Assembly: GCF_020171285.1 (NCBI RefSeq)
Contig: NZ_JAIUZI010000001.1
Coordinates: forward strand, 62,001 to 126,000
From: Seohaeicola saemankumensis
Lineage (GTDB): Bacteria > Pseudomonadota > Alphaproteobacteria > Rhodobacterales > Rhodobacteraceae
Length of the DNA stretch: 64,000 nt
Direction of reading: 5' to 3'
In this document: in pieces, positions 1,146 through 6,224 of the stretch
Layout: every line of letters starts with the position of its first letter
Numbering within the stretch: position 1 is the first letter of the stretch
Made by a program: the position numbers and the translations under genes
The notes under the pieces: model-generated
Told to the model about the DNA's origin: nothing
Databases searched by the model: none
What the model saw: only the letters and a program-made list of their open reading frames with translations

Positions 1146-4100
1146 TTAGACACCGGTGTCGATGTCCAGCCCGGCTCCGAGGTCGGCGCCGAACATATCG
1201 TCGGCAGCGTCCGCTCCGGTTGCTCCGCCGGCATCCACCGCGCAGGCATCTGCGCCGCAGGCGTCGTCGTCCATGCCGCCGTCCGCTCCGCAGGCGTAGC
1301 CGCCACAGGAGCCATCGTCAGCAGCCGCCGCCGCAACGCCGGAGCCCTCGTTGCCCTCGTTGCCCTCGTCGCCTTCGTTGCCTTCGTTGGCTTCGTCGCC
1401 TTCATCGCCTTCGTCACCTTCGTCGCCTTCATCGTCTTCGTTGTTTTCGTCGCCTTCATTTCCTTCGTTGCCTTCATCACCTTCGTTGCCTTCGTCGCCC
1501 TCGTTGCCTTCGTCGTATTCGTCGCCTTCATCGCCTTCGTTGTCCTCGTTGCCTTCGTCGCCTTCATCGGCCTCGTCGCCTTCATCGCCTTCGTCACCTT
1601 CGTTGGCGACCTCGTCGCCTTCGTTGCCTTCATCGCCTTCGTCGCTTTCATCGTCCTCGTTGCCTTCGTCGCCTTCGTCGCCTTCATCGCCTTCGTCGCC
1701 TTCGTTGTCCTCATTGGACTCGTTGCCTTCGTCGCCTTCGTCGCCTTCGTCGTTCTCATTGTCCTCGTTGGTTTCGTCGCCTTCGTTGCCTTCGTCGCCT
1801 TCGTCGCCTTCGTTGTCCTCATTGGCTTCGTTGCCTTCGTTGCCTTCGTCACCTTCGTTGTAGAGGCCCACAGTTGCCTCGTCGCCTTCGTCGCTTTCGT
1901 CGCCTTCGTTGTCCTCGTTGCCTTCGTTGTTTTCGTTGTATTCGTTGCCTTCGTCGTTTTCGTCGGCCTCGTCGGCTTCGTCACCTTCGTCGCCTTCATT
2001 GGCCTCGTCGTTTTCGTTGTCCTCGTTGCCTTCGTCGCCTTCGTTGTACTCGTCGCCTTCGTCGCCCTCGTTGTCCTCGTTGCCTTCGTCGCCTTCGTCG
2101 CCTTCGTCGTATTCGTCGCCTTCGTCGCCTTCGTTGCCTTCGTCGTTTTCGTTGCCTTCATCGCCTTCGTTGTTTTCGTTGCCTTCATCGCCCTCGTCGT
2201 ATTCGTCGCCTTCGTCGCCCTCGTTGTCCTCGTTGCCCTCGTCACCCTCGTCGCCGCCAGCGGCGCTTTCGTTGCCTTCGTTGTCCTCGTTGCCTTCGTC
2301 GTATTCGTCGCCTTCGTTGTCCTCGTCGCCTTCGTTGTTTTCGTTGCCTTCGTTGTTCTCGTCGCCTTCGTCGCCTTCGTCGCCTTCGTCGCCTTCATCG
2401 CCTTCGTCGTACTCGTCGCCTTCGTTGTTCTCGTCGTCCTCGTTGCCTTCGTCGTTTTCGTTGCCTTCGTTATCCTCGTCGCCCTCGTTGTTTTCGTTGC
2501 CCTCGTCGCCTTCGTCGCCTTCGTCGCCCTCGTTGCCTTCGCCGTAGTAGTAGTAATCGTCCTCGTCGCCTTCGTCGTATTCGTCGCCTTCGTTGTCCTC
2601 GTCGCCCTCGTTGCCTTCGTTTTCTTCGTCGCCTTCATCGCCTTCGTCGTTTTCGTTGCCTTCGTCGGCCTCGTTGCCTTCGTCGCCTTCGTCACCCTCG
2701 TCGTGGTTGCTTTCCTCGTTGCCTTCGTTGCCTTCGTCGCCTTCGTCGCCCTCGTTGGACTCGTCGCCCTCGTCGCCTTCGTCGTATTCGTCGCCTTCGT
2801 TGTCCTCGTTGCCTTCGTTGCCTTCGTTGCCTTCGTCACCTTCGTCGTTGTTGCCGTAGTAATAGTAGTAGTCGTCGTCCTCGTCGCCTTCGTCGCCTTC
2901 GTTACCCTCGTCGCCTTCGTCGTTTTCGTTGTCCTCGTTGCCTTCGTTGCCCTCGTTGCCTTCGTCGCCTTCGTCGCCTTCGTTGTCTTCGTTCTCCTCG
3001 TTGCCTTCGTCGCCCTCGTCGCCTTCGTCGCCTTCGTTGCTTTCGTCGGCTTCGTCGCCTTCGTCGTATTCGTCGCCTTCGTTGTCCTCGTTGCCTTCAT
3101 CGCCCTCGTTGTATTCGTCGCCTTCGTCGCCCTGGTACTGGGTCTCGTCGCCCTCGTTGCCCTCGTCGCCTTCGTTGTTTTCGTTGCCTTCGTCGCCTTC
3201 GTCGCCTTCGTCGCCTTCGTTGTCCTCGTCGGCTTCGTCGCCTTCGTCGTACTCGTCGCCTTCGTCGTTTTCGTCGTCCTCGTTGCCTTCGTCGTTTTCG
3301 TTGCCTTCGTTGTCCTCGTCGCCCTCGTTGTTTTCGTTGCCTTCGTCGTTTTCGTCGCCCTCGTCGCCTTCGTCGCCTTCCTGGCCGTAGTAGTAGTAGT
3401 CGCCGTCCTCGTTGCCTTCGTCGCCTTCGTTGCCTTCGTTGTCCTCGTCGTGCTCGTTGCTCTCGTTGCCTTCGTCGCCTTCGTCGCCTTCATCGCCTTC
3501 GTTGGACTCGTCGCCCTCGTCGCCTTCGTCGTATTCGTCGCCTTCGTCGTCCTCGTTGCCCTCGTTGCCTTCTACGCCTTCATCACCCTCGTTGCCTTCG
3601 TTGCCTTCGTTGCCCTCGTCGCCGTTATAGGACGCGCTTTCGTTGCCTTCGTTGTCCTCGTCACCTTCGTTGCCTTCGTTGCCTTCGTCGCCTTCGTTGC
3701 CCTCGTCGTTCTCGTCGCCTTCGTTGTTCTCGTCGCCTTCGTCGCCTTCCTCGCCCTCATTGCCTTCGTCGGACTCATCGCCCTCGTCGTATTCGTCGCC
3801 TTCGTTGTCTTCGTTGCCCTCGTCGCCTTCGTTGCCTTCGTCGCCTTCGTCGTTGCCGTAGTAATAGTATTCGTCGTCCTCGTTGCCTTCGTCGCCCTCG
3901 TTGCCCTCGTCGCCTTCGTCGCCTTCGTTGTCCTCGTTGCCTTCGTCGAACTCGTTGCCTTCGTCGCCTTCGTCGCCTTCGTTGTCTTCGTTGTTTTCGT
4001 TGAATTCGTCGCCCTCGTCGCCCTCGTCGCCTTCGTCGCCTTCGTTGCCCTCGTCGCCTTCGTCGCCTTCGTCGTTCTCGTTGTCTTCGTTGCCTTCGTC

Positions 4101-6224: not shown

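What the first reader, a model, noticed from the sequence alone, without database searches (positions are those of the whole stretch)
1146..6224. Giant (D/N)-E-x triplet-repeat protein with a SCP2-like head
Seen directly: a 1,692-residue frame with ~1,440 residues of in-phase (D/N)-E-x triplets, an ordinary-composition head and a Cys-bearing tail, its own terminator and no frameshift. About one residue in three is Glu. I know no described family of this layout. A strictly maintained triplet over 4.3 kb implies selection on the protein. Possible roles (inference): cation buffering, extracellular matrix, condensate formation, or a heavily modified peptide scaffold.
Basis: partly seen in the sequence, partly recalled or inferred. 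Interest (0 to 1): 0.93.

Follow-up and report, generated by a model that had tools for sequence, protein, structure and literature searches.

The report
Giant acidic repeat peptide precursor
This bacterial gene encodes a 1,692-residue protein made mostly of 449 Asp/Asn-Glu-X triplets; relatives lie beside genes for a radical-SAM enzyme and mostly also for a C39-type peptidase and an enzyme of an iron-oxygenase family, so it is likely the precursor of a secreted, chemically modified acidic polymer of a kind we found no report of.

Summary
In detail: one open frame on the minus strand (1146-6224) with a folded head, 449 (D/N)-E-x triplets and a four-Cys tail. It is not isolated. The same genome holds a second giant triplet gene on another contig, between a radical-SAM/SPASM gene and a HlyD-like/C39-peptidase export set. 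I hold ten such giants (nine complete, 798-1,692 aa) from seven Rhodobacteraceae genomes. All ten have a double-glycine leader; the nine complete ones carry CGADGG...DACG(A/T)DACA(V/I)DAGG near the C-terminus. The window gene is colinear with a 1,625-aa orthologue; aligned Glu codons differ by 165 silent changes against 14 losses. A 2OG-Fe(II) oxygenase subfamily occurs in all 11 genomes found with pieces of the system and, at that similarity, in none of the other 287 genomes of one draw. A sister clade with Cys-rich, mostly CGAD-type precursors but no triplets lacks it. I read the gene as precursor of an exported, modified acidic polymer: radical-SAM chemistry predicted on the Cys tail, oxygenase chemistry predicted on the Asp/Asn of the triplets. 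No modification has been measured. 'SCP2-like' is only weakly supported.

The parts
1146..6224 (-). whole gene: giant precursor-like protein, 1,692 aa
5775..6224 (-). head domain (residues 1-150); relatives also occur as stand-alone proteins, mostly of about 155-195 aa
   Evidence: alignment A1, model pLDDT 87; 64 database relatives, 63 of them without a Pfam domain
5697..5840 (-). leader region (residues 129-176) ending in ...LTDEDAAKIVGG; shared with the start of the headless giants
   Evidence: 52% identity to the second giant of this genome; GG in 10 of 10 giants
1344..5669 (-). triplet body (residues 186-1627): 449 (D/N)-E-x triplets, x mostly Gly, with 19 interruptions of the YYYYG/QYQG kind and others
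   Evidence: colinear with L003
1149..1343 (-). C-terminal tail (residues 1628-1692)
   Evidence: conserved in 9 of 9 complete giants
1224..1307 (-). Cys motif of the tail, CGGYACGADGG...DACGADACAVDAGG (residues 1640-1667), three C-x-x-D units; predicted target of the radical-SAM enzyme
   Evidence: CGAD also recurs in two of three sister-clade precursors
1085..1123 (-). intrinsic-terminator-like hairpin, with a T-run, downstream of the gene

Best explanation
The window gene encodes a giant protein with a double-glycine leader-like stretch that is likely the precursor of an exported acidic polymer, predicted to be modified on its Cys tail by a radical-SAM enzyme and on the Asp/Asn of its triplets by a 2OG-Fe(II) oxygenase. 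Shown by sequence: the layout (head, double-glycine stretch, triplets, Cys tail), the second giant with enzyme and export genes in the same genome, the colinear conservation, and an oxygenase orthologue in each of the 11 genomes found with pieces of the system. Inferred: (1) the N-terminal region of the radical-SAM enzyme binds the leader and the enzyme forms Cys-Asp thioethers in the C-x-x-D tail; (2) the oxygenase hydroxylates the beta carbon of Asp and Asn in the triplets, which would explain why that position accepts just D or N; (3) the C39 domain cuts after GG and the HlyD-like and membrane proteins export the chain; (4) the product, with nominal charge near -800 before any change, works outside the cell as a polyanion that binds metal ions, with the cross-linked tail as an end-knot or anchor. 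The head occurs as one intact copy in each of the 9 genomes that have it, fused or separate, so it probably serves the whole system in trans; in this genome the window gene is its only source. Rough confidence per step: precursor and export 0.9; tail as radical-SAM target 0.65; triplets as oxygenase target 0.45; extracellular metal-binding polymer 0.35.
For: Second giant in the same genome beside the radical-SAM gene. The radical-SAM protein is TIGR04463-like (475.8 bits); CxxxCxxC in 11 of 11 sequences compared. Giant, radical-SAM, HlyD-like, C39 and a third membrane protein gene lie together in C15, L004, L043, L041 and L069. C39 peptidase 1.8e-18. GG in 10 of 10 giants, Cys motif in 9 of 9 complete ones. 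Colinearity and silent-change excess. Oxygenase of 66-89% identity and at least 350 bits in 8 of 295 genomes, next best 288 bits; these 8 are the genomes with head or acidic-clade radical-SAM pieces among 394. G774, G775 and G777 have it too, while the sister clade G325/G381/G367 has only 31-32% paralogues. In G259 the radical-SAM frame is broken and the oxygenase frame has one stop, so both decay together. One intact head in each of 9 genomes.
Against: The window gene itself is not next to any of these genes; in its genome they lie on another contig. No modification is measured and no expression is known. The radical-SAM score is below the TIGR04463 cut-off (525). The C39 protein has no Walker A motif, so the energy source for export is unknown. 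The oxygenase could act on the tail or on other proteins; its model is poor (pLDDT 63) and its nearest solved relatives are named uncharacterised. G158 has head and oxygenase but no radical-SAM match was listed for it (78% complete). G147 and G254 keep an open oxygenase frame beside a decayed precursor or cluster. D/N agreement between the two orthologues is only modestly above shuffled alignments (0.80 versus 0.73).
Confidence: 0.5

Rival explanations
1. The triplet body is an unmodified polyanionic chain (spacer, ion buffer or matrix polymer). Only the Cys tail is modified, by both the radical-SAM enzyme and the oxygenase, and the giant length serves to hold that end-group away from the cell.
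For: The tail motif is conserved in 9 of 9 complete giants and CGAD recurs in two of three sister-clade precursors that lack triplets. Triplet x-residues and lengths vary widely between giants.
Against: The sister clade has Cys-rich precursors and a radical-SAM enzyme but lacks this oxygenase, so the oxygenase follows the triplets and not the Cys core.
Confidence: 0.27
2. The radical-SAM enzyme itself works repetitively on the triplets (epimerisation or a cross-link at Glu or Asp), as TvgB works repetitively on TVGG repeats.
For: TvgB is a precedent for one radical-SAM enzyme modifying a repeat many times (PMC9062424, sections read).
Against: Radical-SAM relatives of 33-39% identity go with Cys-rich repeat precursors without triplets; its nearest curated models include Cys-modifying ones such as PapB, far below cut-off.
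Confidence: 0.13
3. An unmodified intracellular acidic protein (cation buffer or condensate former) in which the head is the functional part; the neighbourhood of relatives is incidental.
For: The window gene and its orthologue L003 stand alone beside genes that I read as LysR and formate-dehydrogenase types, away from the maturation genes; stand-alone heads exist.
Against: All 10 giants carry the GG stretch and the 9 complete ones the Cys motif; the 5 genomes first found with the head all carry the radical-SAM gene, though none was listed for G158.
Confidence: 0.07
4. The array is a selfish slippage expansion or an assembly artefact without function.
For: L067 has a near-homogeneous NEG run typical of recent expansion; three genomes hold decayed systems (G147, G254, G259).
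Against: Two genomes share the interruptions in order; Asp/Asn and Glu are kept while silent sites vary.
Confidence: 0.03

Closest known systems
tvg cluster (TvgA TVGG-repeat precursor, TvgB radical-SAM, TvgC Fe/alpha-ketoglutarate oxidase, TvgD/TvgE peptidase/transporters; PMC9062424, passages and sections 4, 5 and 9 read)
   Same: Repeat-bearing precursor with a radical-SAM enzyme, an iron/2OG oxidase and peptidase/export proteins.
   Different: Motif is (D/N)-E-x, not TVGG; complete precursors are 798-1,692 aa; an extra head domain and a conserved Cys tail. Homology of the enzymes to TvgB and TvgC was not tested.
TIGR04463 'radical SAM/SPASM RiPP maturase' (rSAM_vs_C_rich)
   Same: Nearest NCBIfam model by a wide margin (475.8 and 484.6 bits; next 237); sister-clade precursors are Cys-rich, with CGAD units in two of three.
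   Different: All 394 genomes searched stay below the curated cut-off of 525; here CGAD is only a tail behind hundreds of acidic triplets.
Ranthipeptides (PapB; Cys-Xn-Asp/Glu thioethers; PMC9413430, abstract read)
   Same: Three C-x-x-D units in the tail; PapB accepts Cys-Xn-Asp with n = 0-6 (abstract).
   Different: The PapB model scores 99.8 bits against a cut-off of 340; product chemistry unknown here.
Aspartate/asparagine beta-hydroxylase AspH on EGF domains (PMC6817910, passages read)
   Same: A 2OG oxygenase accepting both Asp and Asn, as the first triplet position would require.
   Different: The oxygenase here is TIGR02466/PF13759, with no kinship to AspH shown; the substrate would be a linear repeat.
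His-Xaa-Ser (Hxs) tripeptide-repeat system
   Same: Tripeptide repeat plus SPASM radical-SAM maturase (system logic recalled).
   Different: No H-x-S repeat; the HxsB model scores 49.7-58.2 bits against a cut-off of 370.

Membership tests
RiPP-type leader/core precursor system | relatives of the precursor lie beside maturase and export genes | tested here: met
   C15, L004, L043, L041 and L069; L070 lies beside the radical-SAM gene on a short contig.
RiPP-type leader/core precursor system | the window gene itself lies beside a maturase (usual, not essential) | tested here: not met
   It stands alone; the radical-SAM gene is on contig 15 of the same genome. The same holds for L003 and L067.
RiPP-type leader/core precursor system | leader with a double-glycine site, and a C39 peptidase in the system | tested here: met
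   GG in 10 of 10 giants; Peptidase_C39 1.8e-18 (L007).
RiPP-type leader/core precursor system | core shown to be modified | not testable with these tools
   Needs mass spectrometry.
TIGR04463 maturase family | score at or above the curated cut-off of 525 bits | tested here: not met
   475.8 bits (C15), 484.6 (L007); 0 of 394 genomes of the family pass.
TIGR02466 / PF13759 2OG-Fe(II) oxygenase | score above the curated cut-off | tested here: met
   TIGR02466 198 bits against 62.5 (C15 copy); PF13759 1.1e-23 for the L069 copy.
SCP2 domain | sequence match to Pfam or to solved SCP2 chains | tested here: not met
   No family at E up to 10; profile search of PDB chains gave none.
SCP2 domain | SCP2 fold | tested here: inconclusive
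Ranthipeptide | Cys-Xn-Asp motif with a PapB-type maturase over its cut-off | tested here: not met
   Motif present (C-x-x-D) but PapB model 99.8 of 340 bits.
tvg-type pathway | TVGG repeats | tested here: not met
   No TVGG repeat in the protein.
tvg-type pathway | TvgB orthologue | not tested
   The TvgB sequence was not fetched.

The most novel reading that the evidence does not exclude
A bacterium makes a ribosomally templated poly(beta-hydroxy-Asp/Asn-Glu-Gly) chain with several hundred hydroxylated residues per molecule, closed by a radical-SAM thioether end-knot and secreted through an ATPase-less C39 exporter: a new class of genetically coded, oxygen-dependent polyanionic polymer acting as an extracellular metal sponge.
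Probability: 0.2. Interest if true: 0.93.

Novelty: new variant of a known kind. Interest (0 to 1): 0.74.

Why it matters
RiPP-type precursors are usually thought of as short peptides (recalled). Here one genome spends 1,692 and 855 codons on two precursor-like proteins whose bodies are almost nothing but acidic triplets, kept by selection and tied by gene content to two oxidative enzymes. If the triplets are the oxygenase substrate, one enzyme would act hundreds of times on one chain. The system splits the question neatly: a sister clade has the radical-SAM enzyme and Cys-rich precursors without triplets or this oxygenase, so each enzyme's target can be tested separately. Such genes may also be missed by annotation: a search of a very large protein collection for long relatives with the window's head returned none, although genomes hold them.

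Tried and rejected
Pfam and NCBIfam on the head and leader: nothing. Protein search with the head as part of the full-length protein: none of 1,210 candidates passed, so giants were found through genomes instead. Head homology to the 170-aa protein of the sister clade: hhalign E 3e-4 but probability 40%, and only chance-level BLASTP pieces; left open. The oxygenase model was too poor (pLDDT 63) for a fold search. A D/N code conserved by position: agreement only modestly above shuffles; not claimed. Assembly artefact: rejected by colinear L003. A collagen-like helix was considered and rejected: Gly holds 295 of 448 third positions and Pro none in the window protein. A PlpX-like splice at the YYYYG interruptions (recalled chemistry) was considered and dropped: such runs are not seen in the C15, L069, L004, L043, L041 or L067 giants; PlpX homology was not tested. 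The TIGR04463 search is unspecific at low scores: it rang in 83 of 394 family genomes and in 11 of 14 control genomes at E 0.001, and still in 3 of 14 controls at 1e-50. I therefore used only the 9 of 394 genomes at 280 bits or more. Literature: searches listed no paper on this system, judged from titles and abstract beginnings; subscription papers are mostly not held. The fold search used solved structures only; no AlphaFold DB was on hand.

Full report
Observation. The frame is real and stands on the minus strand, window 1146-6224: 1,692 aa from ATG, no internal stop. Residues 1-150 form a head of ordinary composition, residues about 129-176 a leader-like stretch ending in LTDEDAAKIVGG, residues 186-1627 the triplet body, and residues 1628-1692 a tail with four Cys. 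In the body 449 triplets fit [DN]E-x; of the 448 with an in-phase neighbour, x is Gly in 295, then Asp 54, Asn 34, Tyr 20. The body is cut by 19 interruptions, among them YYYYG and QYQG; 13 of them shift the register. The protein's nominal net charge is -799, with a single Lys/Arg in the body. A strong hairpin with a T-run follows the gene.

Selection. Triplets were picked by fit to [DN]E-x, so the informative numbers are the misfits and the silent sites: only 3 single triplets between fitting ones break the pattern, while the Glu codon is GAA 292 and GAG 158 times. An orthologue from another genome, L003 (Rhodobacteraceae MAG, head 64% identical, 1,625 aa), stands in the same neighbourhood beside genes that I read as LysR and formate-dehydrogenase types (names are my reading of translations). 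The two bodies plus tails align with score 6122.8; 15 shuffles of triplet order gave 4797.7 +/- 30.5 and the highest of 20 more was 4895.9. Of aligned Glu positions 255 keep the codon, 165 change silently and 14 are lost; Gly positions give 119 silent and 114 lost; D-N exchanges are 86. The aligner favours such matches, so these are not free counts. The D/N choice itself agrees 0.80 against 0.73 in 20 shuffles, so a positional D/N code is not claimed.

The second giant. The same genome (44 contigs, 99.95% complete) has one head match, the window gene, and a weak leader match on contig 15. That match opens a second giant of 855 aa with the same triplets and the same tail. Around it lie an Rce1-like membrane protein, a radical-SAM/SPASM protein, a HlyD-like protein, a C39-peptidase membrane protein and a third membrane protein. 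The C39 domain is significant in the L007 copy (1.8e-18); no Walker A motif was found in the HlyD-like, C39, third or Rce1-like protein (L007 copies). The C15 radical-SAM protein is nearest to TIGR04463 (475.8 bits, cut-off 525) and has CxxxCxxC.

How many. All 10 have a GG stretch and the 9 complete ones CGADGG...DACG(A/T)DACA(V/I)DAGG. In C15, L004, L043, L041, L069 and L070 the giant lies by the radical-SAM gene; the window gene, L003 and L067 stand alone, in genomes that carry the radical-SAM gene elsewhere. The head is fused to the giant in 4 of 9 complete ones (window, L003, L004, L067) and stands alone in L005, L006, L007, L068 and L071. Exactly one intact head was found in each of 9 genomes (G000, G145, G147, G158, G167, G294; G774, G775, G777); G147 also holds a broken one, G254 has only a fragment, and G774's second match is the leader of its other giant. 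Of 11 genomes with pieces of the system, 7 hold a giant. Three are decayed: G147 has a broken precursor with the other genes open, G254 has remnants, and G259 has a radical-SAM frame broken ahead of its catalytic half with no precursor before the HlyD-like gene. G158 (78% complete) showed head and oxygenase only; no radical-SAM match was listed for it. In G294 the radical-SAM cluster lacks a precursor and the giant sits elsewhere.

The oxygenase. Beside the clusters in C15, L041, L042 (two copies), L043, L069, the decayed L072, and L004/L084 lies a 2OG-Fe(II) oxygenase, PF13759 / TIGR02466. Searched with the real L069 protein in 295 genomes of the family, copies of at least 350 bits (66-89% identity) occur in 8: G000, G145, G147, G158, G167, G254, G259, G294. 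The next best is 288 bits; 6 further genomes have such weaker matches. These 8 are the genomes with head or acidic-clade radical-SAM pieces in the searches of 394 genomes. G774, G775 and G777 also have it, while G325, G381 and G367 have only 31-32% paralogues. The G259 copy has one stop inside. Genomes are related, so this is not 295 independent trials. In G294, G259 and G777 the oxygenase is not beside the held radical-SAM gene. A secreted-looking protein with an HExxH motif accompanies the oxygenase in G774, G254, G145, G259, G777, G167, G147, G294 and G158; in the window's genome its nearest relative is on another contig at 34% identity.

The sister clade. G325, G381 and G367 have radical-SAM proteins of 33-37% identity to the C15 one, beside proteins of 554, 480 and 478 aa with 34, 41 and 25 Cys and 5, 13 and 0 CGAD units; [DN]E pairs number 1, 0 and 2, so there are no triplets. 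Cys-rich targets thus go with the radical-SAM enzyme in both clades, and the oxygenase goes with the triplets. This is the main reason for assigning the two enzymes to the two parts; it is an inference from distribution.

Mechanism. I commit to a leader-guided, two-enzyme maturation and export path. Steps shown: gene content, motifs, conservation, co-occurrence. Steps inferred: leader binding by the radical-SAM protein; Cys-Asp thioethers in the C-x-x-D tail (PapB accepts Cys-Xn-Asp, n 0-6; PMC9413430, abstract); Asp/Asn beta-hydroxylation in the triplets (AspH is a precedent for one oxygenase taking both residues; PMC6817910, passages; Asp beta-hydroxylation by a different, MNIO, enzyme is known in a RiPP, PMC13060819, passages); cleavage after GG; and an extracellular metal-binding role.

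Nearest known system. The tvg cluster (PMC9062424; passages, sections 4, 5 and 9) has the same parts list: repeat precursor, radical-SAM enzyme, iron/2OG oxidase, peptidase/transporters; its authors expect the oxidase to act on the peptide. The present system differs in motif, in size, in the head and in the Cys tail. Hence 'new variant of a known kind'. Eight paper searches listed nothing on this system; one search found no paper naming TIGR04463.

Distribution. With the C15 radical-SAM protein 365 database proteins pass 1e-100 among the 7,996 candidates scored; of the 120 listed, the first 51 (the query's own entry included) are at least 72% identical over 95% or more of the query, and the names given are Sedimentitalea, Arenibacterium, Tateyamaria, Pseudooceanicola, Pseudodonghicola and Paracoccaceae. 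A draw of 385 genomes of the class gave one distant match at E 1e-50 (230.5 bits, G750) beyond the window's own genome.

Noticed in passing
L044:3476-5140 (-), L046:16437-17879 (-), L047:16133-17569 (-): Sister-clade radical-SAM clusters with Cys-rich repeat proteins of 478-554 aa (CGAD units in L044 and L046), each near an uncharacterised protein of about 287-313 aa that looks acyltransferase-like (my reading, untested).
   Followed up: partly
L042:6650-7720: Decayed precursor in G147: broken head, short acidic stretch and Cys tail still readable in pieces beside open radical-SAM and export genes.
   Followed up: partly
L072:11495-13701: Decayed remnants in G254: a head fragment runs into HlyD-like sequence and C39-like pieces, while the oxygenase next door still matches over residues 6-206 of the query without a stop.
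   Followed up: partly
L048:1480-3600: Decayed radical-SAM gene in G259, broken ahead of its catalytic half, followed by HlyD-like pieces and no precursor; the oxygenase on another contig of that genome has a stop inside.
   Followed up: partly
L067:4943-7492: Giant of G294 whose body is almost pure NEG (144 N to 40 D, 164 of 184 x = G), which looks like a recent expansion.
   Followed up: no
L069:4735-5559; L042:13978-14835; L043:15076-15948; L086: Conserved secreted-looking protein with HExxH (metallopeptidase-like) paired with the oxygenase; no Pfam match for two copies and no NCBIfam match for one. A candidate for processing the exported chain.
   Followed up: partly
L041:1525-2745; L084:5840-7471: RTX calcium-binding repeat protein (L041, Pfam HemolysinCabind) and an RTX-looking frame (L084, my reading) next to two of the clusters.
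   Followed up: no
L008:12876-13637, L007:3031-3774, L042:4339-5217: Rce1-like (type II CAAX protease-like) membrane protein just upstream of the radical-SAM gene; the Pfam match is borderline (23.4 bits for L008 and 21.0 for L007 against 22.4); L042 by resemblance only.
   Followed up: no
window 34420-45289: Region with integrase-like, transposase-like and other mobile-element-like frames, by my reading of the translations; not tested.
   Followed up: no
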